A DNA stretch of 64,000 nt from Corallium rubrum (Eukaryota > Cnidaria > Anthozoa > Scleralcyonacea > Coralliidae): the NCBI GenBank assembly GCA_964035015.1, contig OZ035997.1, positions 89,161,965-89,225,964 of the forward strand. The letters are read 5' to 3'. The notes below the pieces were generated by a model. The model ran no database searches and was not told where the DNA came from. It was given only the letters and a program-made list of their open reading frames with translations. Position 1 is the stretch's first letter, and every line of letters starts with the position of its first letter. Shown one piece after another: positions 17,110 to 60,078 of the stretch. Made by a program: the position numbers and the translations under genes.

Positions 17110-17111
17110 AC
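17077..17111. repeat. Poly-C run followed by (CA)n
   Basis: About 19 C followed by about eight CA units, inside the 2.8 kb insert. Apparent reading frames here (minus-strand CVCVCGGGGG) are translated repeat. Confidence 0.9.
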
Positions 17112-18069: not shown

Positions 18070-18225
18070 AGAAAAAATTGAATAACAATAGCGTAATATT
18101 CAGCATTTCCAAGTCCAATGCAAAATTTTCATTTCGAGAACGATGAGAAAATGAAGCCAATTCATTGGTCGAGGAATTCACGTGACAATCACGTTACAGC
18201 TGTCCGGCCTCCTCTGGCACATGTG

Positions 18226-18451
18226 GAAACTAAAGAACAGCAGGAAACAGCACAACATCAAGTGGAGAACAATCACCAAAGCTAAAGCCTACAACAACAA
18301 ATCCAAACGATACAACCTATATCTAGCAGAGAAGCTTTGTATCGTAAAAGCCAAAAGCGACAACCTTCTAAACAAAAGAGACGAATTGATTTCCAAATAC
18401 CTACATGAGAATGATCTACCGATTATGAACTACAAGAACGAAGTCACTTAA
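18226..18451 (+). pseudogene. PLE GIY-YIG C-terminal part
   Basis: Continues the frame interrupted at 15389: WKLKNSRKQHNIKW, KAKAYNNKSKR, YLYLAEK-like, NLLNKRDELISKY, ending at a TAA (18449-18451). After it comes the 3' terminal sequence shared with the inverted head copy. Confidence 0.75.
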
Positions 18452-18755
18452 TTTACGAATACTGACATAAGAAGACTAACCTATATCAGAAGGCTGGCAA
18501 TATTTTTATCCTGTACATACCTTATATTTTATTTTATCTGCATATTTATGTCAAATTTTACCTGTATTTTATCTGCATATTTTAACCTGTATATTATACA
18601 AACAATAGCAATTTGCATAACCATTATCTATATCTAACGAACTTTTAAAGCATCCTATATTTACTGTCTGATCAAGATCGTGCAAAGTGAAACTCCGAGT
18701 AACAGCAAGTAAAACCTCATGATTTTGAATATGTCTCATCTTTGATTCATTATAT

Positions 18756-30800: not shown

Positions 30801-33800
30801 TTATTAAACCAAACTTAATTTGAAGGAAGGTGTGCTTCTCCTACAACGCCAAACATGCAGGATTTCAAGTAGTTTCGTTTCATTATATCAAAGATATGTA
30901 AACTTCTCCGCTAAGTCAATATGCACTGAGCTTTCGTGTCATATGCACTTTAAGCTATAATTTTTATAATTTCGAATTGTTAGCGAGCTAGTGTGGAATT
31001 GAAAGGGGGAGTGAATTCCAATCCTTTGGACCTTGTGCACAGATCGAAAATTAATATTTATGTGAAATGATATATATCGTGAAGTCTATGTCTAGTGAAA
31101 CGTTCATGTATATTAAAATTAAAGTTATATAAAAAGGATTTGGAAAAGGTGAAAGATTATTGATATGTCTAAAATGAAACAGGAAATTTGATATTTGATG
31201 ATTAATTTACACTTTTTATACGTTTCTCTGATCTCTTGTATGTTGATCAGGTGGTAGATTGGTTGGTTGGTTGGTTTGTTGGAATGTTATATGGTTGGTC
31301 AAGTGTGATTTCGTGCTTACATTGTTCAGTTTGGGTTGCTGTTTGCGCCTGTTTGGTTCGTTATCTGTATACGATTGAACGTTTAGGATTTTCTATTTTT
31401 CTGAACTATTTCCTGTCCGCACGGGTATTGTGCGTGATATCGTATTCTTACTAACGCCAAATAAGCGATTATATTCACCTCTGAATGTTAAGCCGTAAAC
31501 AGAGATGGGTTAATGCAAATTGTATTATTAATCAGACAATTTCAAGACTTATTTATATAATGTTTTTAGTAATGTTGTTTTCTTCTCTCATTTATAATTA
31601 CTATAGATTTGTTGTGGATGCCCTACTTACTTTTACTGTTTTCAGTATGTTGTGTCCGTCAATAGTGTTTGTAGCAGATAATTGGCAACAGGTTAGTAAA
31701 TTGTACGCCCCATTTACGTCGCATTACCGACGAAGTTAATTCGAATTAAATTTGTCTGAATTAAATTTTGCGACGTTTAGCGCAGGCCTTATACTATAAA
31801 CCCCTAAACTATATAACAAAAATTACAGTGCCCCTTTTTACTGTACGAGGCAGCTCTCTATAACATCATCAGTATATATATAAGGTGTATCTACTATGCA
31901 TGAGAGCATCAAAATATACTGTACTGAACTCCAATTCAGTGTATGACATACGGTATGATACGTGAAAACACTCATTCAAATCCACGACAAATGAATCCAA
32001 AACAAATTAACAATCGGAATCCATATCATACACGAGATTTTCGACTGTATCCGTCCTGCATACTGCAAATCCCAAAGTCCCCAAACAAAACTATTAAAAT
32101 AAATCTATCCTCAAGTGAAGCCAACTGCTTCTATAGTTTCGATTTCAGCCACATGGAAATCGCATAAATTAGCGCATTTACGCATGCGTGTTCATAATTT
32201 ATGTAAATTATGTAAAAGAATATAAATAAATAATTCTTTGAAAGTTTTCATGGCGATAAAATAATATAAATAAGTTTTGTGGAAACACCACGTAAAATAT
32301 TTCTTTGCTAAGCTTTCGGCCTGTTGACTCAGGCCTTCATCAGAGTAATGACAACAAGTTGTTGGCTCACGTAATTTATAAACTAAGCAACTGATCAATT
32401 AAATCACGTAAGAATGCAATGGCGTGTATCACGCTAATTTTATTAATTAGAAAACAAAATCAAGAATGTTCTCCGAATAGGGCACACCACGTGCTGTTTA
32501 ATGGCCGTCCTTCCTGAGAAATAATTCGATGTTTCGCGATCTCAATAGACTCCCTTGTTCTTCGCGTGAAGTATTGCTTGTCGCTGGCTAAGAGTGACGA
32601 CTCTTCCCACTTAACACAATGGTCATACTTCCAAGCGTGTTTGGCAACAGCAGATTTATCCTGTTGGGCTTTAATGCAACATGTCTTCTGCTCCTTCAGG
32701 CGAGTTGAGAGATTTCTTCCCATTTCCCCGATGTAAACCGGCAAGCCACACTCACACGGAATGCGATACACTCCAGGCTTAGATAAGCTATCCACCTCAT
32801 CTTTATGTGTGAAAAGTACCTTGAACAATTTGTGTTGACTAACCCTCTCAATTTTGTGGGATGCTGGTCCGATGTACGGAAGAGAAACTGAAGGTGGTTC
32901 TTGCTGGGACTGAGTATTCAGCTCCGGATGTACCGTAGGTGTTATAGAAGCTTGAATCATTTTCTCAGGAGATTTTCCCACGAGATTTTTGCACACAGAC
33001 GATTTGATGCTGGGATGATCGAATCAATGAGTATCAAATCGTCTGTGTGCAAAACTCTCGTTCATCGAGCGCGAACAATGTGTGACGAAGAACATCTTCA
33101 GGATGAATTAGATCACCTTAAGTTGGTTTTAACTAACAACGGTTTTCCTGAGAAGATGATTCAAACTTCTATGACACCTTCGGTACATCCGGAGCTGAAT
33201 ACTCAGTCCCAGCAAGAACCACCTTCAGTTTCTCTTCCGTACATCGGACCAGCATCCCACGAAATTGAGAGGATTAGTCAACACAAATTGTTCAAGGTAC
33301 TTTTCACACATAAAGATGAGGTGGATAGCTTATCTAAGCCTGGAGTGTATCGCATTCCGTGTGAGTGTGGCTTGGTTTACATTGAGGAAACGGGAAGAAA
33401 TCCCTCAACTCGCCTGAAGGAGCAGAAGACATGTTGCATTAAAGCCCAACAGGATAAATCTGCTGTTGCCAAACACGCTTGGAAGTATGACCATTGTGTT
33501 AAGTGGGAAGAGTCGTCACTCTTATAGCCAGCGACAAGCAATACTTCACGCGAAGAACAAGGGAGCCTATTGAGATTGCAAAACATCGAACTATTTCTCA
33601 GGAAGGACAGCCATTAAACAGCACGTGGTATGCCCTATTCGGAGAACATTCTTGATTTTGTTTTCTAATTAATAAAATTAACGTGATACGCCATTGTATT
33701 CTTACGTGATTTAATTGATCAGTTGCTTAGTTTATAAATTACGTGAGCCAACAACTTGTTGTCATTGCTCTGATGAAGGCCTGAGTCAACAGGCCGAAAG

Positions 33801-36800
33801 CTTAGCAAAGAAATATTTTACGTGGTGTTTCCACAAAACTTATTTATATAATATATATTAACATGTAATTTCCATTGGTAGCTACATATACCTTTTGGTA
33901 TGTTTCTACAAATTAGTTTGTCCAGTATGAATGAAGTTTGTCCGAAATAGATAGAAGATGATGTGGAATAAATAGACATGCTTGTACTTAGGTTTGTCGT
34001 TGTTATGACAACGGTTGCTAAGCAAATGCTTGAAATTGTTACAATTACACCATTTTACGTTGTGCAACCAAAACTATTTATTTTAATAACGTTTAAAACA
34101 TTTGATGATGCAACCCACTCTCTAGCGTTATACTAGTACGCAAAGTTAGTCCTTATCTTGCTTGCATGTCATCGACGTCGACATCATCATCATCAGCAGC
34201 ATCATCTTCACTCAATACGTTGCTTGTGGCAGTGTTGGCACACTCGTCTTGACAGCAACATGCTTCGGTGCACGAAAGGCTATTCTTCATACAGGAACAG
34301 CGTCTTTCTTGGCAAGTTCCTATGCAGCGACAGCATACAAGTTCCATTACGGCATCAGGGGCTGGAGCTAGGTCTGTCCAATAGATTTAAATTTTCCCCT
34401 CTTTCACATACCAACCTTGACCATTTGGATTCTGGGTAGTGACATGTGGTTCCAAGGCATGCTTCCAGAGATATACTTGGTAGTTTGCACGCTTTATATG
34501 GTTTAATTGTCAGAGCGGCCTAGCTGTGTCGGAGGAAGCTGGTGTGACTGCAAGTTTTTGCTCTTGCAAAACTTCTTGTATATATCTAAGATTGTTGACA
34601 CTTTTACACTGCTGGTCATTGTAAAAGGTATCTATGTCTTCCTGTTGTAAAAGATTCGATCTATAAAAGCATTTATTTGGTCTATTCAACTGCAGCATGA
34701 ATAGCTAGTTGTATCTGGCACTTTACGTGCCAGCCTAGGTTCTACATGTGATCATATAATTTATGCACATCTATTACATGGTCCTAATTCTAAATTATGC
34801 CAATATATTACATCTCCCTTTTTTTTTGTTTGTTTTGATAAAATGCATACTAAAGTCTAAGATTTCTAAGATTTGTTCTCCTTCCCCTACCCTATTCTCA
34901 ATCACTTAATACAAGCGTTTCTTTCTTGTCCGTTTATTCTCCGTATCTATCAGGCTTGCGCACAGCTCTACCCGATCGAGTTCTATAAATTTCTTCTTGA
35001 TTAGTAATCTGAGGCCTCCCGGTAGGTGGGGTCCTAATTGCTTGTTCTATTTGTTTGTCAGTTTGGCAACCAACGGTCTCTGCAGGTTTCCATTGTGGCT
35101 CCGTATCTTGCGATGTAGTTATTCTTCTTATGGGCTCTGCAGTATGCTGGATGTGTCGTCGATTTCGGCGCAATAAACCGCCATTCTGCGCCTCCACCAC
35201 ATAAGATCTGGGTTCTGGACACTCTCTTTGAACTGTAGCTGGTTCCCACTTTCTGGTTATGGGGTCCTGTATCCGAATGCCCTGTCCTGGCCTCAAAGGA
35301 GAAAGGTCTCGGGCATGTCTGTCATAATGTCTCTTCTGTTTTTCTTTCTTTTCTGCAAGACGTGCATATACTTCGTCTCGCAGCTCCACTTTATTGCGTA
35401 TTTTTACAGGCAGGTTTCCTTTTAATTTGCGGCCAAATAACAGTTCTGCCGGGCTCGGAATACTGCTGTCCACTGGCGTTGTGCGGATACAAAGAAGCGC
35501 CATATCCGGATCATCCCCACTCGATTTAGCTTTTTCTAGAGCATATTTCACGGTCTGAATTATTCTAGCTTTCTATAAAACCATTAGATTGGGGGTAGTG
35601 GGGTGATGAAGTTACATGCGTAAATCCTCACCTCTCGCAAATACGCTGTACTGGGCAGCACCAAATTGTGGTCCATTATCACTCACTACCTTCTGAGGGA
35701 TTCCTTGCTCTGAAAATAGTTTCTTGGTATTGTCAACAACAGCTTGGGCAGTACAGTGGATGGGCATCTTCATTACGAATGGAAACTTTGAATAATAATC
35801 CGCTATTACCAAGTAATTGTCTCCATCAAACTGGAATAAATCTGTTCCAAGATGGAGGGTGTTAGACAGCTTGGGATAATCACACGTTCACCCTTTAGAA
35901 CTAGGCTATCTTCTACTGACAGCTCATCTCTAAAGGCCCAATGTGGCTGAAGTTGTTTGGGTAGATCTCTCCTCTTGTCTGGCCTCCCCGCTACTATTGT
36001 CTCCTTCAGTTGTTTAGGATAGGATCCTTCGTTGTTTCCTGCTTGATCTGGTCAAGTTTTGATGGTGTAAACTGAACATGACTGACCTGAAGAGCCAGAT
36101 CAATTGTTGCGTTGTCCATACTTGGACATCGAGACAGACTGTCTGCCACCAGCATTTCTTTTCCTGGTAAATATTTAACCGTAAATGTTTGAAGACGTAA
36201 TAGCATTCTTTGTAGCCTTGGAGGTGCGGCTGTAAGAGGCTTTTGTTGTATCATCTCAAGTGGTTTATGATCCGACTCAACAATGAAATGTTTTCCATAG
36301 ACGTACGTATGAAACCTTTCACATCCGAACACTACGGCGAGAAGTTCTCTCTCTATATTTGCGTACCGTTGCTCTGTTTCACTCAGCGACTTAGAGGCAA
36401 AGGCTATTGGCTTATTGTTTTGGATCAGTACTGCACCCAGACCTCTACCGGACGCATCAACTTGTATGACTGTTTCTTTCTTCGGATCGAAGTAAGTCAA
36501 AGTAGTCTTTCCACAAATGTGATCTTTAATTTTCTCGAGATCTCGTTGATGTGCCTCGGTCCATGCAAATTCGGTGTCTTTCTTTAGAAGATTTCGCAGA
36601 TTGGCGGTCTGTTCCGACAGTCCAGGAATGAATGGAGACATGTACGTAATAACTCCCAAGAATTCTTGAAGCTCGGTCTTGCTCCCGGGGGACTGTCTTT
36701 CTTTAATGACTTTCACTTTTTCAGGGTCTGGGTGAACACCATCCTTGTCATAAATCATGCCAAAAAATTTAACTTGCGGAACTTTGATTTCACATTTCTC

Positions 36801-39487
36801 ACTATTGAAAACAAAGCCATGTTGTCTTGCCATTTCCATCACGTTGTGCAAGTTCTGGTCATGTTCAGCTTCCGTTTCTCCACACACCGCTATGTCGTCT
36901 GCTATGCTGATTGTTCCAGGGCATTTCTCAAGGATTTGATCCATCTTGTGCTGAAACACATCTTGACTCATTACTAATCCGACGGGCATTCTTAAAAAAA
37001 CAGTATCTTCCAAACGGACTATTAAACGTGGTAAGGCGGGAACTTTCTTCATCTAATAACACCGACCAATATCCATTTTTAGCATCTAGTTTGCTGAAAT
37101 ACCTTGCTCCAGAAAACTTGTGTGTGATTCCTCGAGGGTTGGAGTCTTGTGATGGCATCGCTTTATGGCCTTATTCAGATCTTTAGGGTCCAAGCATATG
37201 CGCGGTTTACCATTTCGTCGTCTTGACATGACTATGCTGTTTACCCAATCTGTTGGCTCTGTTATCTTTCTTATTACCCCCTTTTGTTCCATGTCATCTA
37301 ACTCACATTTCAGTTCATCTCTCAGATGTATTGAGCATTTTCGCGGTGCATGGATTACTGGATGACTTCCTTCTTTCAAGACGATGTGGTATCTTCCTGG
37401 AAAATTTCCCATCTTGTCGAATCTCTCGGGGTAGGTTGCCTTCAAATCTTCTACTGTGTCGACACGTCCAAGCTTCTCGTTTGACTTTGCAGTGCTGCTC
37501 GGCAACGCTGTTGGAGACTTGTTTATTTCGCAATGAAGTGTTACCAGCTTGTGATCCAGAGAACTTTGAAGACCGAGAATTGCAGGACCTTCTGAATCTA
37601 CAATGTATAGAAATCGGTGTTAACCCATTTATACCCGCTATATCGGCACTGGAGTTGTATAACCCCATATTGTGGTATCTTGGTTCCGTTATATGCGGTG
37701 AGGGTTACATGTCGGTTCTTGACTGCGTTTCTCCGAGGAAGACCGGCAGAATCGAGTTTTCCTGGAAACATTTTCCTGAACATTCCCACTGGTAGGATAT
37801 TGCCTAGCGCGCCTGTATCTATTTTTACTTTGAGGTCTGCTCGCATTCTATACACCCGCTACATTTGACTTTCAAATGGGTGTACGCTTCATCTTGTGTT
37901 TCTGAATGAGTTTGGTCACCAGTGTTGATGTCTGATATCGTGATGCTTTCTATTGTTAATTCTTCGAATTGATCTTCGTAATCGGAAAATTCGTTCTTTC
38001 TGATCTCATGTAAAATCGTTAGTTACTAAGTGTAAGTTTTAAGACAAGGTTACTGTAAGGATACAGCCAAGATATTTGAGCTACTGCCGTCTTCTTGCTG
38101 ACTTGCGTCTGTCGTGGCTGTTTTCGCTTAGGAGTCGTCTTCGTGCCTGATATAGTATTCGGGAGTTTTCTTCTTTTAATTCTTGGTCTTTGTAAACAAC
38201 TTGCAAAGCTCTTTCCAACAATCTATACAACATAAGGTTATCCTACCGTTGCCACCATGTAAAAGATTCGATCTTTAAAAGCCTTTATTTGGTCTATTCA
38301 ACTGATGTCTACAGCATGAATAGCTAGTTGATCTGGCACTTTACGTGCCAGCCTAGGTTCTACATGTGATCATATAATTTATGCACATCTATTACATGGT
38401 CCTAATTCTAAATTATGCCAATATATTACACCTGTCTTGGTGGTATGTTGTTGCCCAATGCTGCAACTATTCTTCCCATCCGCATGGTTTTCCTTTCACG
38501 ATCTCGAACGCTTTCTTTTTTCCCTTTCCTGCGAATGCACAAACAGTGTCACATCTGGTAAGGGCATGAAGGCTAGGTAAAACCTGACAGATCTCTGCAC
38601 CAAGCAGCAGAGGTCAAAAGCTGTGCTTGCAGAAATGGTACCTTCCAGGGAAAGAATCTTTGTGCAAATGTCCCCATGAGCGACATACAAAGTGCGTCCA
38701 TCAATCTTCTGGGCATAGGCTTGATTGGTTGACCACGCACGGACAAGATATTCCAGTAAACTAGACTTGTTCTTGCCATTAGCCATGAACTTTCTCCATT
38801 GACGTGGGCACACCTGCTGAGGACTGGTGATGTTGATAACCAGCTGATCATCTTTGCCACGCTTGTGTCTGAGTTCTTTATTGAAATGTCAGGATATTGG
38901 TCTCCTACAAAGTCTATTCGAGTTGCTTCCAGCCTGTTCCAAAATTCTACTAAATACCATGTCTGCGAAGTCAGAAAATCTATATCAGGCACTCTCACTA
39001 GCATCTGCAGCATTGCCATGGCATCTATGATGACAGCCATGGTATGATCAGGTAACTGGAATTGGAAGCAGTCCACATGCATCATTCTCGAGACGTTTGG
39101 TCAAAGCAGCTTTGCTTGTCTTGGCCAAAGACCCATCAAGAGTAGCTAAAGACCATGGAAGAGGACCAAGCTCGTGTGCTAGCAGCTGTCGCAGATCCAC
39201 TTGACGGCTTTGTCCGACGACTAACAGACGAGCAAAGAGGTTTCTGTCGGTTGTGAGTATAACATTCTTGCCTCCTATCTTAACAGGTGTCTTTGTCCGG
39301 GCATCACGGAAAGTAGCCAGTTTCAGCTTCGTGCATGAGTGTTCAAAGAACCAGTTGAATTAGTGATCAGCCTGTCTTGCACAAATGATGTAAAAGCAGT
39401 TTTTCCCTTCATCTTTGCTATCAACAGGTCTTGTTTTGATGCTTTCACTTGCAACACATCCAGAACTAAGGCTAACGAGATTCTCTG

Positions 39488-39567
<80 letters not shown>

Positions 39568-41906
39568 CATGTTTAATGACACATCATCGCATAATAAAAT
39601 GAATTACAATGTGTTTACATAAAATATATAAAATATATAAAAATATTACAATTTTCACGTGCGGCTAGGTTGCAAAGAGAATAATTTACAATAAATATCT
39701 ACGACTATAAATATATAATGATTACATCTATAATGTTTAAGATTATATACAATATTATCAATATTTATTTAAAACACGAATCATACTTGGGAAGAAACTG
39801 TTATTAAATCTATCGGTCCTACATTTAAAAGAGGAAAATGGCCGGTGTTCCTTAAATTATATTCAAGCGCGTTTTCCCTCGTCTGGGTAAGATGACACGA
39901 TAACCGGCCGCCTGACACTATCTTCTTGACAGTTCTCTCACAAAGATCTGTTCGACGTTTATCAAGCCTAGGACACTGGAGTGCTGCTAGTGCCTCACTG
40001 TATGATCGGCCTGGTAATATAATCCTCAGCGCTCGTTTTTAAATTTTCTCTACCTCTTCAGACAAGAACCTGGAGACTACAATGCCAAACAGTACAGCAA
40101 TATTCTAAAATAGAGCGGATGATTCAAATGGATTGCGCCAGTTGCTATACTTCCATCACTTTCTTCACATCTTGCTCGTCTCTTTCCATGCGAGCAACGC
40201 CGGTCTCCTTGTGCTGTCTACTTTGACTTCCTTGATCCCCTGCCGTCATGTCTCGGCACTTGTCTACGAAAGCTGCGCGGGAGTGAACTGTAAGCATCCA
40301 CCGTTGCACGGCCCCTTTCCTGAGGCTAAATCCCACTATACCACCTTTTGTCTTGGTGCTTCGATTTATCGTTTGCTCAATGGTTTGGTCAACAAGCACC
40401 TGTGACAAATCCATGTGACAATCTTCTCTGAACTCCAAAATCACCATTTTCAAGTTGCTTCTGTGTATTATTATTATTTATTATTATTAATGACATCATG
40501 TCCACCAAGTACACTGGTAGGCGTGGGTGTATTTAATGTGGTCGTACGCGAAGAACCATGGAAACATTTCTTTGATACACTCCAAGTGTAGATCCCAGTT
40601 TCCTTCTCTGGTTGCTTGAATAAAAGTCATCAGTAAAGCCACCATCTCCAGGTAGGCGTTCCAAAACACTTCCAATGGACCGTTGTCTTCTTTGCAATAC
40701 TCTTCATAGAGATTAAATATTTCAGAATTCAGTCATGGATACAAGCTTGTAAAAACGTTCCGCGCTGAACTCTTTTCGTATGTCTTCTGTATGACACTGA
40801 CAAGGATCATGTGGTTGGTTTGATGACCAGTTTGATTGCAGCCATGACTTAAAACCAACCCCACACTGGAGACGTTGCATTGCTTCGCAAACAACCTAAA
40901 ATAATTCGTAAAGTAAGAAATATATAGGTTAAGATACGACTATAATGTACTTTATAGTAACTATGTTTTAATGGATGTAGTTATGCAGGCATTTATGTAA
41001 ATCTTCCTTATGGCAGTCCTACAATAGCTCCCAAGTTTATGAACAATTACCTTATGTGTAAGCACAGCCCAGTTGTAGTGCCGACCTTCCAGAACACCAG
41101 CAACAGATCCTGAACCAACGATACCACTTTCGACTAGTATATCATCAAGACCAGCATCTCTAAATCGTTTGCCAATGGCGGCGATATAAGCACAAATGAT
41201 GTGAAATGAAACCATCCTTACGACCAAGCGTTGAAATGCACCTGGTTCTGCCACAGCACCTCAGAGCCTTTGCGTATATTGCTTGATTAAACACAACAAC
41301 GAAACACAACAGTTGTTCGAGCTAGTCAGCCATTTGAAGAGACCTCTGCAACACTGTGTACACTGTTGGCAGCTCTGTTGGACTTGCTTCGATTACTTGA
41401 CAACAACCGACGGAGCTTTCGCGTGGGATACTACTCTCTTGAAGCCTTGTGTTGAATCCTGTCCATGCTGGTATCACCTGGCGCGTTGATCGTCTGCCCA
41501 CGTGAAGAGCGTGTCTTAGATTGGCTGTCTACAAAGCATCCAGGCAAAGTCTGTTTTTTGTGCATGCACCCCAACTTCTGTGATAGTCGCGGTATCAACT
41601 CGGTGACATCAATGTGGACTGCATTGGGGCCCTATCGACGCCCTGAATGGTATGGAAGCATATCCATGGGAATGCATGTAACTGAATGGATTTTCGATCG
41701 AGGCTGGCTAACAGATCTTTCAGGAGGTAAAGCACAGCTGAGTCTTTCGCTGGATGACTATACCGTTTGTGCAATGTGTGGTTCCTTTCCTAGCTGCAAA
41801 CAAAAAAGAAAAGAAAAACACGTGAATAAACTACTACTCTCATTCATATATATTGGAACACGTATGCTGGAATTTGGCACGATTGACGCGTTTTGGCCTA
41901 TTTATG

Positions 41907-41949
<43 letters not shown>

Positions 41950-42036
41950 GTAAGAGAAAAGAGACCAACAACTTCTGGTATATATAGGCCTTTTTTAATA
42001 GACGTTTCGGTAAATATACCTTCCTCAGTACAATAG

Positions 42037-42098
<62 letters not shown>

Positions 42099-44475
42099 TA
42101 TATATATACCATCAAAGTATGAAAAGTTAAACACGGAGCGAGCGCATAAAAGGGAGGCCCCCCCCCCCCAGGCTACGCACTGACAGTTTGAAATGTCAAC
42201 AGTCAAGTCAACAACGAGTCAGTGAGCTGGTGAAGTTTTGAGAATTATCTTTTATTCGTAACCTTTTTACCTTTCAATACACCAGGTAAATTGTAAAGAG
42301 AAACATAAGAGTCTTAGATAAAAACAATTCTGAAGTGATTAAATTTGTTTGGTCAATGAATTTGTAAAATATTTGACCTTGCTTTCAAACTTTGTCTTTC
42401 GCCGTTTTTTAAAATAGAGTTCCACATAAAAGACAAGACTTTGATATTTAACTAAAACAGACCATTTAAACGAAGAAAATAAATAGTTTATTATATTAAC
42501 TTTGCAAGTCAATATATCACAAATTGAGAACTTTTTAGTAGTCATTTGTCTGGCTTTCCAGACAACATGTACTGCCTGTCGTGCAAAAACAACGTTGTCG
42601 TCGTTGAAAAGTGAGATGATGTTCAGACATCAGTGTGAAGATATGCATTATCAACATTCTTGGTGTATATAAAAGGGTCTTATAATTACAAGGACGGAAG
42701 ATATGAATGAATAAACTCAGAAGAATACAGACATCATGTGCATTCAAGTGATTCAACAAGAAAAACAGTGAGACGGTTGGTCCACTTTCGTACGGTTTTT
42801 CCTCACGTTAGTTTTGTTTCGACGTATTGGAAGCGTAATTTTTCCGTCTTTCTACTCAAAATGATGTGTTACACTTGCAAAAGACAAATTCGACGTTTGG
42901 AAAGGGGCAAGTTTAATTTAAAAACAGTAAACAAGTCTCACAAAAGCTCCACTCTTCAGTCTTAGCGAAATTCCTCGGCAAGGCCGGAAGTAATTTTAGC
43001 TGTGTGGACCAATCAGATGCGTTTGGCCAGGATTGGCTGAGTACCTCAACCAGTACTTATGCAGTCGCTCCGTGTTTAAGGCAGTTCTTATATACGGTTT
43101 TGTCATAAAAAATATGAATAATTAACTAAATTTACATAAATTTACATAAAGCTAATTGTTATAATGAATCCTCTTTTTAGAATGAAATTCTTGTCATTTA
43201 TTAAGTCCATGAGACGTAAGAGTGAACAATTGTGCGCTCCAATATGCTTCACGGGTAAAAAGGAAGTTGTCAATATTAGAAATATTATGAGAGCGCACTA
43301 ATTCTATGCATTGAAATGAAAGATCAGTGAGCGTATGTGAAGTTTTATTAAAGTGTATAGCAACTTCACATGTATGTTTAGAGGTATTGATCGACGACTT
43401 ATGGTTTCTAAATCTAATTTTGGCTTCATTAGACGTAGATCCAACGTACTGAACTTGACATTTATTACACGAAATAAGATAAATAATATTGTTGGAAGTA
43501 CAAGTGAGTACATCTTTAATACGATAATGTTTACTTGTTTGAAAACTATAAAATGTTTGAGATTCAATAAGGTAATTTTGGCAGAAATCACACCTCTGTC
43601 TCTTACACTTAAAACAACCTCTTAAAGAAAAATCAGGTTCTTCTAAATGAAGACTTTTGGATTTGGATGGTGCCAATATATCTCTAAGATTTTTGGGTCT
43701 CCGAAATGCGGGAAAAATAGAATTGAGCGTAAAAACATTCCGAAGTTCGGAAGAAGATTCTAAAATATGTATGTGTTTTTTAAGAATATTTCTCATATTA
43801 GGAAGTTTAGGATTGTAATCCATAACGAAAGGGAAAAGTATTTTTTTTCTTCCTAATAGTGGGTTTTAAGAGATTATCTCTGGAAATACTTAAAGCTTTA
43901 TCAAATTGAGTGTTGACTAAAGAGATGTGATAACCTTGATTAATGAAGTAGTTTTTATATTCCGTACATCTTTCATTAAGAAAATTAGAAGTAGAACAAT
44001 TCCTACGAAGTCTAAGTGCTACCCCATAAGGAATAGCTTTAAAACAATGACTCGGATGAGCACTAGAAGGAGGTAAATAAACATGGCTGCCAGTGGGTTT
44101 GGAATAAGTGTCTGTTGGGTAAATCCATTAACCAAATGGAGAGTAATATCCAAAACATTAAGAGACTTGTCTGAATATACTAATTCAAACTTAATGGTGG
44201 GATGCAGTGAATTTATATAATTAGTAAATGCTTCTAATTTTTCAATGCCTTGATACCAAAGATCAAAAACGTCATCTCTGTATCTCCACCAAAGGGAAGG
44301 TTTAATAGGCCCACAAAATTTGGCTTTGAAATCAATTTCGCCCATGGCAATAAAAGGGATTCATTATAACAATTAGCTTTATTGTGTAAATTTATGTTAA
44401 TTTAGTTAATTATTCATATTTTTTATGTCAAAACGGTATATAAGAACTGCCTTAACTTTTCATACTTTAATTGAT

Positions 44476-44512
<37 letters not shown>

Positions 44513-44692
44513 CTATTGTACTGAGGAAGGTATATTTACCGAAACGTCTATTAAAAAAGGCCTATATACCAGAAGTTGTTGGTCTCTTTTCTCTTACTGC
44601 ATATTCATATTTCAAGAAAACTGGCTACGAATCTCTTCATGAGATCCTTCCGGATATCGTCTTCCATTGGCTCAAGCCTCTTCATTTACTTC

Positions 44693-44763
<71 letters not shown>

Positions 44764-47700
44764 TTAATATACCTGTCAAGGTTTCTTCTTGAAGGTCGTT
44801 GTTGTCCCAGCAAAAGATACCTGGTACACAAGAACAACACACACTTGGTAGTAATACGACGTCGCGTTGCTTTACAATCTGTTTCTCAGCAAGCGCTGTC
44901 TCTAATTCTTCAATTTGAGAATACGACAGACCATTACCAAATCGGTTGAGTATTATTATTACTTCAGCGTTCCCAGCAAGACTTTTGACAGTCATTGGAA
45001 GGGCCACATGTTTTTGGGTCTCGATACGACCACGACTAACACATGTATTAGATCCTGAGCCAATTAGGAAAGGACTAAGCGATGAATATCTGTCGTTAAA
45101 TAAGTTGCAATACTCGGATATAGAAGAAAGAAGACACGCATGCTAGTTGTACAGCAAGTTAGGTGCTATAGCATTGTCACGTTCTAGATCTTCTGGCGAA
45201 AGTGACCAATGCCATTGTTAGCTTCAAATTCACAAGTAAGCTCCGTATTAGTTTTGCAGTTATGAGAAACCTGATATGCATCGTCTCTTTGTGCATCTGC
45301 TGTATCTGTTCTGTCTTCATCGCTCCTTTATTAGCACTGGTATTCACACATACGCTTTCTACAACTCGAGCTAGTTCAACGTGTGAGCTATACACGATTT
45401 CTGGTTGGTTCTGGTTAAGTGGTTGTTGGAATGACAAACTATCTCCAAGACATTTTTTTTCAATTCTCGTCTTAGCTTGGAAGCCCTATAGGTTTGTGCT
45501 TCGATTCCTTCTTTAGCTAGCAGATTGGTGTATCTTTCAAGAAGATTGGACTTCTCGACGGCTTTCGCATCATTTATGACTTCATCTTGTACGAATTCTT
45601 TGACTTGTTAAATGCTCTGTTATAACTTTCGTGTATATTATCATCTTCTTGGTCATGTTGTTAGACAATGCTACCAAGCATACGCACTCGACAGCAATGT
45701 CACCAGAGAAGAAATGAAACGCCAGTCTGAAAATTCGCAAGATCTATGTGCAGATTCTTACGATCTGTCTTGTGGTAACGAGCTTCCATGCATGTAAGCG
45801 TGTCTGCACTAGATCACAGATTCTAGCATTCAATATTGATAAACGTGCCATATGCCAGAAAGACAAAATTATGTGCAGCAAGGGAAAAGGAGCACGGACA
45901 AGAGAACCACTCACACAAAACAGCACTGATGCATATGATGGTATTGCAGGTCAGTTAAAAGCAGCACAGATTCGGAACGACAAACGCATGCTTGTAAACA
46001 TTGAAGGACAAAACACTACCATCGATCGTGCTACAAAAACTATTTGCGACCAAAACAGCTGGCTAAACTAGAGGATGATACCCTCCCTTCGGTCCTTCCT
46101 TCCAATAGTCCTTCATATCGCGCCATATATGGCGAATCCTTTCTTCTGTTTGAACAGCTCTCAAACTTTGCCCAACTATTTTTTGTGAATGAAGATAATT
46201 TACCTTCCACTTTTCGTTTAATATGGCAAAGACATTTGTCCCAATTATAGGCTTAGCACTGGTGCGTTTCTTGGCACGTGTCTTAATTTCTACCATAATT
46301 GCACTTTTCTGAAGTCTCTGTTAATATGACTGGTAAATGAAGGACAAAATCAAAGAAAACGCTTAAGCAACTGAAAAAAGGAACACTGAATAAACCACCG
46401 TTATGCCAATTTGTCAATTACCCGATTGAACCTATCATATCAATAATGTTTAAAAGAAATCATTTAATTGCTTTACATAACATTTTATTTGTAATTCGTT
46501 TTTACAAACTGTTGAGCCAACATTCTAAACAAAATCGCCAAGAAAACAACAATTCTCTTACCTTTTATCCTCCCTCCATTTCCAAGATTGAGGCTGATCT
46601 AACGCCCACCGATTATGTGCAGAAAAATAAGTGAATCATTAATTATTTTATTTTATCAATTGTTTATTGTTTTTTATGCATAAAACATGTTGTCCTTCAG
46701 TCTGTCGCATTCGAGTAGACACTTTGCGCGAGAACCAATAATTTAACCTCAGCAATTTTGCACGAAACGGCGTGTAATTACTTCGTCTTTTTTTCCGTAT
46801 TTGGAGGTAACTTATCTTTGATTTAAAGTTTTTGTTGCAAAGAAAGGCAACGTGCTCATAACTTAACTGTAATTCTCCAGGGAAATTACGATTTGTATAG
46901 TACTGACATGTATGAATCGCTTGATGAAAGGAACAGTTCTGAGATGATTAATCATAATAATATTTAGCACTTAAATCTGCCCCAATCATCTCCTTTTGAG
47001 AGAGCATTGCCATTGGCGATTTGCCACTAGTATGACGTTAAAGAGTAGGCAAGAAAAACGTGTCTTTTGTGACACAAGGTCTTTTGCATCATCATATGCT
47101 TCAATTGTTATTAAAATAAACACAATTGCGGGTTGAGGAACGTTGAAAAAATGGCGTAATATCGTAATTTTTCGAGTTTGCTTAGCAACCGTTCCCATGG
47201 CAACGAGAAACGTAAAGTCAGTGAAGGTGAACATGTATCAGTATTTATTTTACATTGTCTGCTATGTATTTCTGACAGATTTCATTCATACTGGATACGT
47301 ACTTTGTAAGATATTTGTTATTTTCTGAACATGGCTGACTTTCGAGCACATTTTATCTTCACCTACACCCTCCTAGAAAAAGTCACTTTTTCGTTTATGC
47401 ACAGGTTACATGTCAGATAACAGGAAGATTGTTAAAATATAGGACATAAGCTTTCGTTTGATACCAAAATTACTATGTCCCATGTGGGGTGCAACGAAAA
47501 TCACGTTTTGGCCACATGTTAAGATTTGGCTCATGGACTATATACTACAAAAATAAACCAGTCGATGCATACAGTCAATGTATGTTTATTTGGCCAAAAT
47601 CTTCTCAATTTACGATTTTGGTACCACAACGGCACGCACGTATATGTTTAAACGTCGAATTTCAGTCGAATTTAATTGTTTTTACTTGGACGCATTGAGC

Positions 47701-50700
47701 CAGGAAATGATTCTTTAAAAACATGACGCTGAATTGTCGACGATAATTCGTCGAACATGCTACATTATCGTCGCATTATCCGTCTGACGGAGACGAATTT
47801 AATTGTCGAGACGAATTTAATCCGTATGTCGAATGTAATCGAGTTATGTCGCACTTTCGTAATGGGTTTCGTTCAATTTTCCGACATTTGTCGCACTATA
47901 TAGTTTCAAGGTGTACGCCAATTAATGGGTGGATGCTATTCGGAGGTATATAGTTGTACTTTTCTGATGTTTTCTTGAACAACTATACCTCCGACCACGG
48001 CATAGTATCCACCCATTGACGTTGAAGCTAGTGCGACAAGTGGAAAATTGAACGAAACCCGTTACACAACATGCATGTTCCAACGGAGGCGTAGGAGGAT
48101 GTTTTGGGGTAGGGGGCTGAATGTCGTCGTGCCTTGGGCGCGACGAACCGCTAGGAAGATCCGGATTTTAGAGTCTCTGTAATGGCGTTTCTTGCATTTT
48201 GAGTACCCTGGGTGCCAGAGGTTCTTCCACGCTCGCAGGGGGGGTTAGTAGGGGATTATATGGGGATATATTTGAAAGAGGAAAAGGGCGAGCAGGAAGA
48301 ACCTCTGGAGCAGAGCGCGATTTCTCTGATCCCGCCGAACCAATCAAAATGCTAAGATGACATTTTTAGTCAGAAACTTGGATGTAAATTCTGATTGGTC
48401 AAAATAAAAAAACATATCTAACGAGCTGTTTTATTGAATATCGAACGCTTACGTCATCGTCCAAAAGTTGACATAATTATACAAGCGTCTGCATGTCAAT
48501 ATTTCATAGGATTCACAAACACAAACAAACAATTCTGCTGTTGGTTCATCGTTATACATGTAAACAAAGGTTTCTTTGGTAAAATGACTTTACTTTCTCG
48601 CGAAGATTTCTCTGAGTGTGTGGTAATGTTTTAAAGCATTTCCCCGAGGTTTAGCTCAGTGAGAAATCAAGCTGAATGTCTGTTCAATTTCATGCAACAA
48701 CGTGATGTCTTTGCCATGTTACCAACTGGTTTTGGAAAATCTCTAATTTTCCAACTGGTTCCAGCTATGTGTCAAGAGCTTTTTGATATTGGCTACACGA
48801 CTTTCCCGAAAAATGCTGTAATGCTCGTGTTGTGTCCGTTGATTTCTTTGATCGAATCACACATGAAGGAATTATTAAGCGACGTCAGCAACGAGACGTC
48901 TTCGTCATTGAAAATATATATATGACAAACAACAAGATAGCATCGTTGAAATATATCTTGTAAGTATGTTGTTAGAAATCTATAAGCTTTAAACCGACTT
49001 CATGTGAGACGTTAAGTAAATAAATATTTATTTATTGAGTGAACATTTTGGACATTTGAAAAAATTCCATATAACCCAGAAACATAAGCCATACAGCAAA
49101 GGGAAGCTTATGAAATTTATAACAACATGCGTACAAGATAGCGTCCAACAATGCATAGTTTGGAAGTTATAACTGTCTGAGTGTCTGCATGACAAGTAAC
49201 AGACGGCGGATTTGAAAGTTTATGGTGAATATCGGGCAGCGTCATGTGGCCCGAACTAAAATCAAACCAGTTTTATTAAATTTGAGCAATTTTTAGTGGT
49301 CTAATGTATAGAAGACTGTCGAGACGATAGCATTATTACTTGTTTGAGAAATACAAAATAGAGTTGACTCTGGATTGTTAAAATATCATTACCCGTACGG
49401 CCCTCGGGTACGGCGGTTTCAAATTTCAAATCAAAACAGTAAAACACGGCTCGGCCGTGTTCCAGAGGTTTTTCGCGCTCGCCTTCCGGGTTGGCCCCTC
49501 CCACTTTACCGCCTGGCTTCCTCGTGTGTCCCCGTTACCCAGGGTACATTTTGAGAGGAGATTTAAGAGACTTCTGAAGATTATAAAATACCAATTAATA
49601 CATGTTTGCTCTAAAAAAGGGTTCTCGATCGCCAATTAGTAGGAATTAAACACATAGTATCACTCAACAGAAAATTTAAATTTACCTTCTTCAGTTAACA
49701 CACGCCTGGGAGTGCGAAAAAAGAAAGATTGGATGTTTCCACGAGCCATCACACGTGTATATAAGGGGGGGGAGGGGGGGGGGGGGGGGCTCCAGCCCCA
49801 CAGTCCCCATGGCAGATTCATGTGACGAACGTTTGAGACCAATCTCATTAACCGACATCGTTATGAGATTATTCGAAAGATCTATGTGCAAGACAGAATT
49901 GTTACATATCACATATCATAGTGGATGCTAGTGATTCAGACCAGTTTGTCCAGCCCCACAGCTGCTTCCTACACCGGTGGACCAAAATTATCAATAGTTT
50001 GTTTTAAGCAAAACTACCAAGACCTTGGTACGAAAATAGGAATAATAACACATACAATAACCAAGACTGACAGAACATGAACTACAACACGAACTATGAC
50101 AAACCACAGCAAACTATCAAAACTCCACGTAACGGATTACCTAATAAGAAAAACTAACAATGATCACGACAAACTCTAAAATATTTTTACACGCATAACG
50201 TTGTCGTTGGGTTATTCAACCATGGAATCGGCATTATCAAAAGTCAAGCATGCGATTTAACGGTCTTTCCATTAGTGTTTTGCGGCGCAGGAAGTTGATT
50301 ATGCTTTAACCAAGTGAAATGTCAAATATTACATGTATACACAAATATTGCATGTACATAATTCTTCCCTTTGCCTTATTACCATTATACATACAGAACT
50401 TCTTACTAGCTTCTGTCAAAAATTTTCGTCTTATTTCTTACTTATTATTTTCTTTCCTTACAGGTATTTGAAAATCATGGCCATAAAATGGATACAAGCA
50501 TTTGGATTTTGATCGTGTTTTTTATTCTGATTCCAGTGTTTCTAATAGAGCGACCAGACATTCTAGCCGTGCTTGCCGTGATTGCAAATGTCATAATGGC
50601 AATATCTGCTGGGTCGTTATTGGTGTATGGTTTAATGAATGTTTCGAAATGGAAGGCGAACATGGCAGTAACATGGTCTAAACTTCCTTTGACAATTGGG

Positions 50701-51019
50701 GTTGTTTCATATGCTTTCGAAGTCGCTCCATTCGTAAGTAGTATAGGGAATCCTAATACAACATGAACCAGGAGAAGCCGCATATACAAAAACCAATATT
50801 TTTCGAGTCTTTATATGTTTATTTAGTTCTTGTATTCTGGGGCATTGAATGCTAGCTCTCAAAGGTCACCTTTAAGTCTAAAGCCTCATACATTAAACAT
50901 CTTAATATGCGTGGAATCATTTGCTTATATAAGTAGTCCTACACAGGAAGCTGTTACCGCTTGATATTTCAGTAATCCGTTTATGTCGAAATATTCCTGG
51001 GTTTGAGCATAGTTAATAG

Positions 51020-51070
<51 letters not shown>

Positions 51071-54000
51071 GGTTTGGAAACTCGCCCAAAGTGATTGTTC
51101 TATGTTTTTGTTCGACTGTTCAAGTTTATGGATATTTGTGCAATTTCATTTTGCACTTGTATTTTCTTTCACGATTTTGCAGTTGTATTTTCTGTATAAT
51201 GAAGCAGTCACCCAATAGCAACGCTCAGGTTTAATTAGCGAGTTGCTTCATCGTCACGTGTTGCGGTGCTTCATCGTCACGTGTCCATAGAATTTAGTTC
51301 CATATAAGGTGTCAGTTCAACACGACCATGCTTCATGTTGAGAGACAATAGAGCTTCCAAACCATGTTATGTTCTATCTATTAACTATGGTTTGAGTTTG
51401 AGAAAAAAATCGTGAATCTAGTATTGATCATACGAGTAAACTATAATTTCCAAATGAGGAATACCGGCGTTATCAGTTTCATTAAATGTTGTCTCCTTCT
51501 CGAGATATTTAAGTTTCTGAAACATGTAAAGTAAGTGCCTCGTGACGTCATTTTCGCACACAGGCAAAAATAAGATTTACAAAATGACTAATATCTCTGA
51601 AACTAAGAGTTAAAAATAATTCAAGAATACCTATGGGGAAAATACACTCCGACGTTCACATTATGTTGTTTCCATGGATACCGTTTGCAAATAGGCGACT
51701 CCATTTGTAAAACAAAAATGTATATTTTCTCTCCATAAAACAACTTTTACTGCAATACATTGGCATGAATATTTGTAGACACACAGATATTGTATTTTGA
51801 ATGTTTCAATCATCATATTCTTTTGAAAAGAAACATAAAATTAATATTTTAATTTTATAGTAAAAATATCCTAAACGGTTTTCGTAGCAACAACATGATG
51901 CGCACAGTGGAGTGTACTTTTATGATAACTATACTTGTGTAAAGTTTGGATTATTTCCACTTCATAGTTTCAGATATATTACTCATTTTGTAAATCTTAT
52001 TTTTGCCTGTGTGAGAAAATGACGTCACGAGGCACTTAATTTACATGTTTCAGAAACTTAAATATCTCGAGAACGAGACAATATTTTGTGAAACTGAAAA
52101 CACCGGTATTCCTCATTTGGAAGTTATAGTTTACTCGTATATCAATACTATAGATTCACGATTTTTTCGTCTTAGTGGCACTTTAAAGTTGGGTCTACCT
52201 TGGTTACTTATAGCTTTAGAATTTAATATTTCCGATTATAATTTTAGGATTTCGATAAGTGACCTCACTTTGCATCGATGAAGGGCTTCGCCCGGTCTTA
52301 AAACTAATCGTGCCAGCAATTTACCACCTTTTCACTTTGCTCTGCATGACAATATTTTTCGTTTTGAAGGCGTGAAAAAATCGTATTATATATATGTATG
52401 TCTATGTGTATGTATTTAATTTAAATTTTTTTCTATTCTTTAATTTTAGATTCTTATAGTGGAAAACGTAATGAAAAAGCCCAAACAAACGCCACTCGTC
52501 ATAAATTGGACCATGAGCATAGTTGTAGTTGTGTATTCTTTAATGGGCTCAATCGGTTACGCTGCCTGTCAAGATAAATGTGAAGATTCTATTATTCTTA
52601 ATCTTCCAGTGACGTGGTAAGTTGGTTTCTGCAAACAAGTATTTATAAATACTTTCTTACAAGTAAAATTTAACCAAAAGGAAGTTGTCCACAAAATTAA
52701 TATGACATATCCTTGTCGAAATATAGTAAGGCTTGAGTACTGCCGAAAATATGGAACGTAGTTTCTAACGTTTCGAGCGAAGGCCCTTCGTCAGAGAGAA
52801 AAAAACAGTTCCTAACGTTTCGAGCGAAGGCCCTTCGTCAGAGAGGGCCATCTTCTTTCTGACGAAGGGCCTTCGCTCGAAGAAACTACGTTCAATATTT
52901 TCGGCAGTACTCAAAACCTTACTATATTTCGATTTGTATTTCAACACTGCCTACGCAGCAGACCATACGTAATATGTAAAGGTCAACAATGAAGACTAGA
53001 CCGGGTTCTCAAGTACGAGGAATTCGTTCCAGTCCGAGGCGAAGCCGAGGACTGGAATGAATTCCGAGTACTTGAAAACCCGGTCTAGTCCGAATTGGAG
53101 GCCTTTACATGACTTCTCAAAATCACTTAGTGTATTCCCAAAATGAATTAGTGCATTAGTAATTAGTGTATGGATGAATAACCGATTGTGTGAAGTAATA
53201 TTTCAAGTCCAAGGACTTGAAATATTATTTCCAGTCCAAGGACTGGAAATAATATTTCAAGTCCTCTGCCCAGTACTTCCCTGGTATTTCAAGTCCCTTC
53301 ACGTGGTGCAATTCAGCGCTTCTGATTGATTGATTATCTCATGAATTATTAATGAGTTTGAGAATTTTATTTCACTGTTTGACATCTCCTTGCCTAGGGT
53401 TAAAAGTATAGAAGATTTCCAACGCATTCACTTTTGTTTCGTTTCGTTTGTTTCGTTTCGTTTTGTTTTTTCAACGCCTTAATTTATAGTTCCTATTTTA
53501 ATATCTTTTAGGTATTTTTCAGTTCTAAAAGTATTCATGGGATTAACTGCCTGTGTTAGTCTTAGTCTAATTTCATTCATTGCGTTTGATATCGCGTTGC
53601 CTACTTTACTAACACAAATCCCTGAGGAACGTCGCACACTAGTGTCTGTCTTATTGAGAATGTTTCTATTAACATTTGCATGTAAGTAACTCTTTCTGGA
53701 CTTTTCTATTCTTGATAATCAAGGTCTGTTTTAAGAATATTATCAATCCTGCCTGCCTGGTAAACTTTCTTTGCCGTTTGCTTATAGTGTTCAGTTAAAT
53801 CTACCATATCAGAAGAAACATGTTTTAAGCTACTTGTCTCCAACTTTAGCGGAAGAAAAATTGAAGGCACTGAAATTAAACTTAATTCATGCAGTAGAGG
53901 CGGCACGGGGAGGACTGGGGGGGACGTGTCCCCCCAATTATCTCTAAGGTCGAATTCAAGGAGAAAACTTGAGGGGCGGGAGGTTTTTGACTGAGATTTG

Positions 54001-58230: not shown

Positions 58231-59205
58231 GATCGGCACGCGACACGTCTTACCAGATGAGAATACACTATTTCAATGGAAGTAACTTGAGTCATATAAT
58301 AATATTTATTTATTCGCAAGGATGTTGCCTACAATATAATTATATGTATGTTCATATCAATCGAGATATAAGAGATGAAACACGAGTTTTATCACACGTT
58401 TCAAACACGAGAACAAAAATGAAAACCGGGGTGTAGCCCCAGAGGTTTATATATTGTTTTCCAGTGTTTGGAGTTTGCTAATAAAACACGGCAAACAAGT
58501 GTTTGATCTTGCTTCTCAAACGAATAATCTAAGTCTGGTTAAAATAAAATAAAAGAGATGTTCATTTTTTGCATCAAGTTTTTGTGTTTTCATGATTTCA
58601 AAATGCAGATTTAAAAATGTTATCCAGTTCACCTGCAAATCGTGAATTATAAATGAGTTTGCGAACTTGCCTGTGTAAACTCGGCGAAAGTCTTTGTTCT
58701 ACCTTTGTCCATGTTAAGGCAAACATGTGCACGGTGAAAATAATGTAATTATTGTTTGGTATAATCATATAATCATATATATGATATACATGTATTTTAC
58801 GGAAAAACCGCTACGACTTCTTTTAGCCGGTTCTGGCGACGAATTTAGTGACAGTGATAAACCAATAATAATTCAATTGGTTGCTAATGTTCTAACGTTT
58901 TGTTTGAACTATAGAAACATCGTGCTATAGTGATTATATGATTTACATCGAGTATTTAGGTCTGTTTACGCTAAATTTTACACAAATATTTAAAAAATGC
59001 AACAAATTAGTCAAGGGGCGCATATTGTCAAATAGTGACAGATCACAAATAAAGCTATATAATTGTTTGCTACAACTTTATGCACTTTTTCAATTACGCA
59101 AATGTACGATAGAGAGCTTGCACGACCAAGATATAATTATAGCAGTTTTATAAATTACGATACAATAAATAGAGGTGCTGCCCTATCTAAAGTGCAAAAG
59201 TTGTA
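58231..59205. other. Intergenic, no gene seen
   Basis: AT-rich. Two short + strand frames (58727-58930, 58938-59153) show no recognisable domain. Confidence 0.35.
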
Positions 59206-59209
59206 CTCT

Positions 59210-59746
<537 letters not shown>

Positions 59747-59963: not shown

Positions 59964-60078
59964 GGCCCCGTTTACACTAGAGCAAAAGTATCCGGATTCA
60001 CATTGTTTTTCATCCTTATGGGAATAAAAGACAATGCGAATCCGCATACTTTTGCTCTAGTGTGAACGGTGTTTTTAT
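59964..60078. mobile_element. Short MITE/hairpin
   Basis: gggccccgtttacactagag and caaaagtatccggattc are mirrored by gaatccgcatacttttg and ctctagtgtgaacggtg. About 50-bp arms, non-coding. Confidence 0.7.

What the first reader, a model, noticed from the sequence alone, without database searches (positions are those of the whole stretch)
32305..52881. Hammerhead-ribozyme-like motifs in three Penelope-like families
CTGANGA-A-stem-GAAA-[ACGT or AGCT]-H occurs at 33765 (+) and 32305 (-), 44521 (+) and 42028 (-), 22136 (+), and three times at 52767-52881. Stems differ in sequence but keep pairing (GGCCTG/CAGGCC, GGTA/TACC, CGAAGG/CCTTCG), which is covariation between families. All share an extra A after CTGANGA and a palindromic helix III, suggesting dimeric or altered hammerheads.
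Basis: partly seen in the sequence, partly recalled or inferred. Interest (0 to 1): 0.75.

Follow-up and report, generated by a model that had tools for sequence, protein, structure and literature searches.

The report
Minimal hammerhead ribozymes in Penelope retroelements
The motifs are real, tiny hammerhead (RNA-cutting) sequences carried by Penelope-type jumping genes in a eukaryotic genome; this kind has been described before, and here its copies often sit back to back.

Summary
A strict descriptor (CTGANGA, 0-1 inserted base, stem II of at least 4 bp, GAAA, NN, T, H) finds 7 motifs in three families, against a mean of 0.015 in 200 shuffles. All 7 carry the inserted A and a palindromic helix III (ACGT or AGCT). 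Stems I and II covary between families in the window and in 30 distinct rows from the same genome. Families 1 and 2 lie beside Penelope-like (PLE) genes in the window; family 3 does so elsewhere in the genome. No Rfam hammerhead model reaches its gathering score. The motifs fit the helix-III-poor, dimer-type hammerheads already reported for PLEs (primary papers not held; citing papers seen in passages). Added here: the families, a uniform inserted A (status in print unsettled), and an excess of outward-facing head-to-head pairs (10 of 11 neighbours within 500 bp). The seven intact motifs all run past their predicted cut, so their templates were uncut or re-ligated there. Folding energies do not favour the dimer. 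Cleavage is untested. Ordinary in kind.

The parts
33764..33807 (+). Family 1 hammerhead motif: stem I UUGCU/AGCAA (5 bp), stem II GGCCUG/CAGGCC, helix III AGCU, predicted cut after 33803 (CUU)
32306..32349 (-). Family 1 hammerhead motif on the inverted arm; one base change leaves stem I with only 2 contiguous pairs; predicted cut after 32310
44515..44552 (+). Family 2 hammerhead motif: stem II GGUA/UACC, helix III ACGU, predicted cut after 44548 (GUC)
41997..42034 (-). Family 2 hammerhead motif, identical to 44515-44552, inverted; predicted cut after 42001
52811..52847 (-). Family 3 hammerhead motif, first of a tandem pair (47 nt period); stem II GGGC/GCUC, helix III ACGU, predicted cut after 52814 (GUU)
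52764..52800 (-). Family 3 hammerhead motif, second of the tandem pair; predicted cut after 52767
   Evidence: weak Rfam Hammerhead_3 match spanning both copies
52853..52886 (+). Broken family 3 motif: helix III and cut site missing
   Evidence: 28.6 bits; sequence
22130..22167 (+). Family 3 hammerhead motif; stem II GGGU/GCUC; predicted cut after 22163
21982..22023 (-). Inverted partner arm of the 22 kb motif with the catalytic core deleted
   Evidence: inverted arms 21982-22005 and 22007-22050; sequence
32261..33852 (.). Family 1 locus: two 5'-truncated PLE copies head to head, 3' ends outward, arms 96.2% identical
32463..33023 (-). Open frame of the family 1 PLE C-terminal endonuclease region (187 aa)
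   Evidence: 124 homologues at E <= 1e-3, several with precomputed Pfam GIY-YIG; the frame itself matches no Pfam family
32895..33527 (+). Open frame of the same region in the other arm
   Evidence: no Pfam match
41937..44610 (.). Family 2 locus: a long minus-strand PLE copy joined head to head to a short plus-strand 3' end
43197..43865 (-). Family 2 PLE frame with GIY-YIG endonuclease domain
   Evidence: PF01541, E 5.7e-5, 23.8 bits, cut-off 22.6; 112 homologues at E <= 1e-3
44022..44360 (-). Family 2 PLE reverse-transcriptase fragment ([10 protein letters not shown])
   Evidence: tblastn with P0117, E 1.2e-8; no Pfam match
42127..43079 (.). Later insertion, flanked by TTAA, inside the 3' region of the family 2 copy; it separates the endonuclease frame from its hammerhead
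   Evidence: TTAA on both sides, 11-bp inverted termini; the other arm holds the uninterrupted site
52716..52932 (.). Family 3 locus: non-coding inverted copy, two motifs on one arm and a broken one on the other
33822..33834 (+). Small hairpin (GUGG/CCAC) between the cut site and the 3' end of the family 1 copy; possibly the counterpart of the stem loop where PLE reverse transcription starts (inference)

Best explanation
These are minimal PLE hammerhead motifs lying in the 3' repeat region (pseudo-LTR) of three Penelope-like families. Each has a complete catalytic core, a short stem I, stem II and a one-base A insert, but no closed helix III; instead it carries a 4-nt palindrome that can pair with the same 4 nt of a second copy, so that the cut site of one copy is held by the core of the other (a dimer, in tandem or in trans). 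The most likely role is weak, protein-assisted cutting of tandem PLE transcripts. Shown: motif, covariation, position 3' of the endonuclease frame, palindrome. Inferred from sequence: dimer working. Inferred from literature on another PLE: weak, protein-assisted activity. Also inferred: the copies in this window came from RNA that was uncut (or re-ligated) at this motif, because the seven intact motifs are followed by about 48-62 nt of element beyond the cut.
For: 7 motifs against 0.015 expected. Covariation: 93.5% of cells paired, 5 of 8 pairs changed on both sides, slid controls at most 45.0%; 88.6%, 8 of 8 pairs changed on both sides, slid controls at most 63.1%, on 30 distinct rows of the genome (that alignment was fitted to the structure). 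Stem I was not required by the descriptor, yet is 5 bp in family 1 (33 kb copy) and 3 bp in families 2 and 3 (random flanks: 0.0094 and 0.059). Genome: 14,400 pattern matches against 2,435 for the reversed pattern; 73 of the 80 stem-positive places among 99 listed have a palindromic helix III. PLE link: in 9 of 9 PLE fragments found, a motif lies downstream on the same strand, 85-421 nt away (1,169 in one case that holds a 949-nt later insert), including four fragments with family 3 motifs (L061 both arms, L055, L063). Literature seen in passages: minimal type I motifs lacking helix III in PLE pseudo-LTRs (PMC7761336; PMC6155905); double hammerheads in PLEs (PMC6466107); protein-assisted PLE hammerhead, insertion not dependent on cleavage (PMC11167929, section 3).
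Against: No Rfam hammerhead at gathering; on the short stretches no hammerhead match for families 1 and 2 and 13.7 bits, E 1.7, for the family 3 tandem pair. The target dimer has a worse predicted energy than two monomers for all six motifs tested, e.g. -30.9 against -36.6 kcal/mol (33 kb copy) and -3.3 against -13.0 (family 2); the cis tandem is -4.1 against an MFE of -28.3; core tertiary contacts are not in that energy model. In two of three family 3 motifs the monomer MFE pairs the core with the cut site. An inserted base next to A9 is outside the consensus core used in PMC3088659. 7 of the 80 stem-positive listed places have a non-palindromic helix III. No activity data.
Confidence: 0.83

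Rival explanations
1. The palindromic motif is kept as an RNA-RNA pairing or protein-binding element of the PLE ribonucleoprotein, not for cutting: it brings two transcripts together so that both strands of a break are primed, giving head-to-head insertions.
For: Outward-facing neighbours: 10 of 11 within 500 bp and 14 of 21 within 3 kb among 80 stem-positive listed places; 27 of 42 motifs have a head-to-head partner, 6 tail-to-tail, 9 none (part of the loci were chosen by me because they held pairs; in the set of the first eight listed places 4 of 7 head-to-head, 3 none). Unequal arms in L061 (985 nt between the innermost arms), L065 and the 43 kb locus fit two separate cDNAs better than one fold-back. 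A PLE protein extends both strands and is predicted to be a dimer, and cleavage-dead RNA inserts equally well in vitro (PMC11167929).
Against: Head-to-head PLE copies are known and were explained by self-priming (PMC3846280, passages); near-perfect palindromes such as L058 (175-nt arms, 17 nt apart) fit that. A full catalytic core would not be needed for pairing alone. Nothing here links the palindrome causally to the arrangement.
Confidence: 0.12
2. The motifs process tandem PLE transcripts and the products are re-ligated into circles, retrozyme-like, and copied from circles.
For: The intact copies read through the cut site, as copying from a circle would also give; a 47-nt tandem pair exists; metazoan retrozymes with type I hammerheads make circular RNAs and are suggested to be moved by PLEs (PMC7229834, passages).
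Against: Retrozymes of animals are described as roughly 170-400 nt repeats with canonical motifs; here the motifs sit in coding PLEs and lack helix III. No circle evidence here.
Confidence: 0.07
3. Chance or simple inverted-repeat DNA that resembles a hammerhead.
For: Stem II is a hairpin that also arises in palindromic repeats; curated Rfam models do not find it.
Against: Shuffle control 0.015 against 7; covariation in both stems; 42 matches of a pattern without pairing in viral contigs reach at most 24.3 bits, and 1 of 42 loci passes the stem II test.
Confidence: 0.02

Closest known systems
[quoted passage not shown] Lunse, Weinberg and Breaker 2017; both not held, known here from citing papers and recall)
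   Same: Hammerhead core, reduced or missing helix III, PLE pseudo-LTR location, palindrome allowing dimers, very high copy number.
   Different: Whether the primary papers show this A I could not check.
PAc (Poseidon, Anolis carolinensis) hammerhead, PMC11167929 (section 3 read)
   Same: PLE with GIY-YIG endonuclease; stems I and II only; 26 nt from the start of stem II to the cut, the same as counted in family 1.
   Different: There the motif overlaps the start of the reading frame; here only the downstream copy is seen because the window's elements are 5'-truncated.
Newt satellite and ASBVd double hammerheads (seen in passages)
   Same: Weak helix III, activity as dimers.
   Different: Satellite DNA or viroid, not coding retroelements; closed (if weak) helix III.
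Metazoan non-LTR retrozymes (PMC7229834, passages)
   Same: Type I hammerheads in tandem repeats.
   Different: Non-coding 170-400 nt units with canonical motifs.
Rfam Hammerhead families
   Same: Core nucleotides.
   Different: No match at gathering; best 13.7 bits for Hammerhead_3.

Membership tests
Hammerhead ribozyme (general core) | C3 U4 G5 A6 N7 G8 A9 ... G12 A13 A14 A15.1 ... U16.1 H17 | tested here: met
   7 of 7 motifs by descriptor; the consensus core is as listed in PMC3088659
Hammerhead ribozyme (general core) | Stem II directly after A9 (pair 10.1-11.1) | tested here: not met
   one A inserted in 7 of 7; no motif with 0 inserted bases in the window
Hammerhead ribozyme (general core) | Stems I and II pair and covary | tested here: met
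   stem I is down to 2 contiguous pairs in the 32 kb copy
Canonical type I hammerhead | Closed helix III in the monomer | tested here: not met
   4-nt palindrome without loop in 7 of 7
Canonical type I hammerhead | Loop I-loop II tertiary contacts | not tested
   -
Rfam hammerhead families | Score at or above gathering | tested here: not met
PLE minimal (dimer-type) hammerhead | Helix III reduced, palindromic | tested here: met
   7 of 7; 73 of 80 stem-positive listed genome places
PLE minimal (dimer-type) hammerhead | Lies in the terminal repeat of a PLE | tested here: met
   9 of 9 PLE fragments have a motif downstream on the same strand; most family 3 loci fetched show no coding part (PLE coding in 4 of 28 loci)
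PLE minimal (dimer-type) hammerhead | Self-cleavage as a dimer | not testable with these tools
   predicted energies do not favour the dimer
Penelope-like element (EN+) | GIY-YIG endonuclease downstream of a PLE reverse transcriptase | tested here: met
   family 2 in Pfam PF01541; family 1 by homologues and by a 705-aa open frame in L065; family 3 in L061
Penelope-like element (EN+) | Direct pseudo-LTRs around the ORF | tested here: inconclusive
   window copies are 5'-truncated; no full element with two direct repeats was seen in the fetched loci
Metazoan retrozyme | Non-coding 170-400 nt tandem units with canonical hammerheads and circular RNA | tested here: inconclusive
   non-coding family 3 loci exist and one has a 47-nt tandem pair, but the motif is the minimal type; RNA not testable

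The most novel reading that the evidence does not exclude
The palindromic, helix-III-less hammerhead is a template-pairing device: two PLE transcripts dimerise through it, one protein dimer primes both strands of the target, and the two cDNAs join 5' to 5'. That would explain why intact copies keep the motif uncut and why the genome is full of outward-facing head-to-head pairs; cleavage would be a by-product or a later release step.
Probability: 0.1. Interest if true: 0.65.

Novelty: new member of a known kind. Interest (0 to 1): 0.3.

Why it matters
It confirms from raw sequence that three PLE families of one genome carry the minimal hammerhead, each with the same inserted A, and that copies read through the cut site. 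The role of these ribozymes is described as unknown in a review (PMC7761336). The head-to-head excess next to palindromic motifs makes one specific role (pairing of templates) testable in the in vitro PLE assay of PMC11167929.

Tried and rejected
Rfam scans: no hammerhead at gathering over the window; at E up to 10 over the window the 36 matches held none; short stretches. Viral contigs: 42 matches of a loose pattern, chance level; 0 for three family patterns. PLE relatives in viral contigs and in bacterial/archaeal genome contigs: none confirmed. Solved structures: no match for the family 1 frame. Target-site duplications: at best 6 bp in AT-rich DNA at the 33 kb locus, 4 bp at two others, none at 22 kb: not convincing. 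Single-copy chance: rejected. My first orientation script counted self-overlapping palindromes as tail-to-tail (21 tail-to-tail, 12 head-to-head, 9 none); one search corrects this by mirroring the motif itself (27, 6 and 9 reordered: 27 head-to-head, 6 tail-to-tail, 9 none); of the 6, several are partners within a double palindrome, within the tandem pair, or in a neighbouring insertion (my reading of the rows). The letters-after-CTGANGA count (A in 46 of 46) and the 32 one-base inserts are biased, because those loci were fetched with a pattern that holds the A; only the absence of 0-base inserts in the rest of those 212,114 bases (0; one 3-base hit) is a weak independent check. The genome-wide count of motifs without the inserted A could not be had (tool busy). 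Helix III count printed nothing (the search expression did not fit the stored letters) and is not used. I searched the paper library for a mention of the inserted A and saw none in the listings or passages opened; the primary papers are not held, so I do not claim that it is unpublished.
Full report
What is there. The window is a stretch of an unnamed 474 Mb genome in 312 contigs, with an exon of an amino-acid transporter (Pfam Aa_trans) and many mobile elements, so eukaryotic. A descriptor of the hammerhead core with stem II of at least 4 bp finds seven motifs; 200 dinucleotide shuffles give a mean of 0.015. They fall into three families: 32.3/33.8 kb (family 1), 42.0/44.5 kb (family 2), 22.1 and 52.8 kb (family 3). 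All have one inserted A between CTGANGA and stem II and a self-complementary ANNT at helix III. The bare word CTGANGAA is not significant by itself.

Structure. Aligned in register, stem I and stem II form in 93.5% of cells, 5 of 8 pairs show changes on both sides, and sliding the partner by 1-3 columns drops pairing to at most 45.0%. Only six distinct rows stand behind this. A model built from the seven scores them 42.3-49.9 bits (by construction), the broken plus-strand copy at 52853 28.6 bits, and the next hit 14.0 bits. Run on 28 loci of the same genome it gives 53 matches at E up to 0.01; on these, 30 distinct rows, all 8 pairs change on both sides, 88.6% of cells pair, slid controls at most 63.1%; this alignment is fitted to the structure. 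Stem I was not part of the descriptor; it has 5 contiguous pairs in the 33 kb copy, 2 in the 32 kb copy and 3 in the others, against chances of 0.0094 (5), 0.15 (2) and 0.059 (3) for random flanks.

Dimers. None of the seven can close helix III alone; two copies can. In the tandem pair on the minus strand at 52764-52847 the arrangement is present in one molecule, and Rfam's type III hammerhead model aligns across both copies, weakly (13.7 bits, gathering 48.5, E 1.7). The predicted energies argue against an easy dimer: for the six motifs tested the target dimer is worse than two monomers (for example -30.9 against -36.6 kcal/mol for the 33 kb copy, -3.3 against -13.0 for family 2, -7.7 against -24.4 for 52794), and the cis tandem is -4.1 against -28.3. 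In two family 3 motifs the monomer fold pairs the core with the cut site. Such models leave out the core's tertiary contacts, but the result fits weak or protein-assisted activity.

Host elements. The family 1 arms encode the C-terminal part of a PLE protein: 124 homologues at E up to 1e-3; the window frames themselves match no Pfam model, while an uninterrupted 705-aa frame of the same family lies in L065. The family 2 frame holds a GIY-YIG domain (E 5.7e-5) and has 112 homologues. Family 3 has no coding part in the window. In the same genome it does: L061 carries two PLE copies head to head, each followed on its own strand by a family 3 motif, and L055 and L063 each carry one. In all, PLE coding was found in 4 of the 28 fetched loci (24 distinct), and in 9 of 9 PLE fragments (window and loci) a motif lies downstream on the same strand, 85-421 nt away, or 1,169 nt where a TTAA-flanked 949-nt insert lies between.

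Genome. The loose pattern with the inserted A has 14,400 matches against 2,435 for the reversed pattern. Of 99 listed places that I analysed (one overlapping row dropped), 80 have a stem II of at least 3 bp, and 73 of these 80 a palindromic helix III; one family makes up most of them, so these are not independent. Of the 19 without the stem, 13 are also palindromic, many being decayed family members. Neighbouring stem-positive motifs within 500 bp face outward in 10 of 11 cases, within 3 kb in 14 of 21. With inverted copies sought around each motif, 27 of 42 have a head-to-head partner, 6 tail-to-tail, 9 none; 20 of the loci were my choice, some because of visible pairs; the set of the first eight listed places gives 4 head-to-head and 3 none.

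What the copies say about use. The seven intact motifs in the window are followed by about 48-62 nt of element past the predicted cut (cuts; ends), and the two damaged arms also hold sequence from beyond it. The RNA that was copied was therefore not cut there, or was cut and closed again. This agrees with the in vitro work on the anole PLE PAc, where cleavage-dead RNA inserts as well as wild type and cleavage needs the protein (PMC11167929, section 3).

What is known. Minimal type I hammerheads lacking helix III in PLE pseudo-LTRs, possibly acting as dimers, are reported in Cervera and De la Pena 2014 and Lunse et al. 2017. Neither is held; I rely on passages of PMC7761336, PMC6155905, PMC7229834, PMC6466107, PMC6431247 and PMC7936874. 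Head-to-head PLE copies are known from a rotifer and were explained by self-priming on an antisense template (PMC3846280, passages). Unequal arms in L061, L065 and at 43 kb fit two joined cDNAs better, near-perfect palindromes such as L058 fit self-priming; both may occur. The inserted A is outside the consensus core listed in PMC3088659 (passages and section 8). I cannot tell whether it is in print for PLEs.

Verdict. A real and correctly spotted case of a known kind: PLE minimal hammerheads. Cleavage here is untested, and curated models do not reach threshold. The bolder reading, pairing of templates for two-sided insertion, rests on the head-to-head excess and on published biochemistry of another PLE, and stays a hypothesis.

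Noticed in passing
window 42127-43079: TTAA-flanked insertion (949 nt net) with 11-bp inverted termini ACACGGAGCGA inside the family 2 PLE copy; the intact site is kept in the other arm. piggyBac-like by its TTAA target (recalled, not tested).
   Followed up: partly
window 34713-38438: Ty3/gypsy-like element: RT and RNase H frame at 36006-37052 (-) (RT_RNaseH E 8.2e-31) between 108-nt direct repeats 97% alike.
   Followed up: partly
window 52450-52617: Exon of an amino-acid transporter (Pfam Aa_trans, E 2.4e-9); the family 3 locus lies downstream of it, probably in an intron (a second likely exon at 53483-53686 has no Pfam match).
   Followed up: partly
window 59130-59700 and 2620-3090: Arrays with an 8-nt period.
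   Followed up: no
window 51430-52140, 55208-56175, 14310-18671: Long inverted repeats (arms 89-98% complementary), other hairpin-like or TIR elements.
   Followed up: no
window 59970-60067 and 14028-14132: Strong hairpins that match miRNA families below their gathering scores; likely repeat-derived.
   Followed up: no
L058:4804-5170: Nested palindrome with four family 3 motifs in alternating orientation, 175-nt arms 99% complementary and 17 nt apart.
   Followed up: partly
L054:2500-8000: Large 46-nt tandem array in which two same-strand family 3 motifs lie 3.7 kb apart.
   Followed up: no
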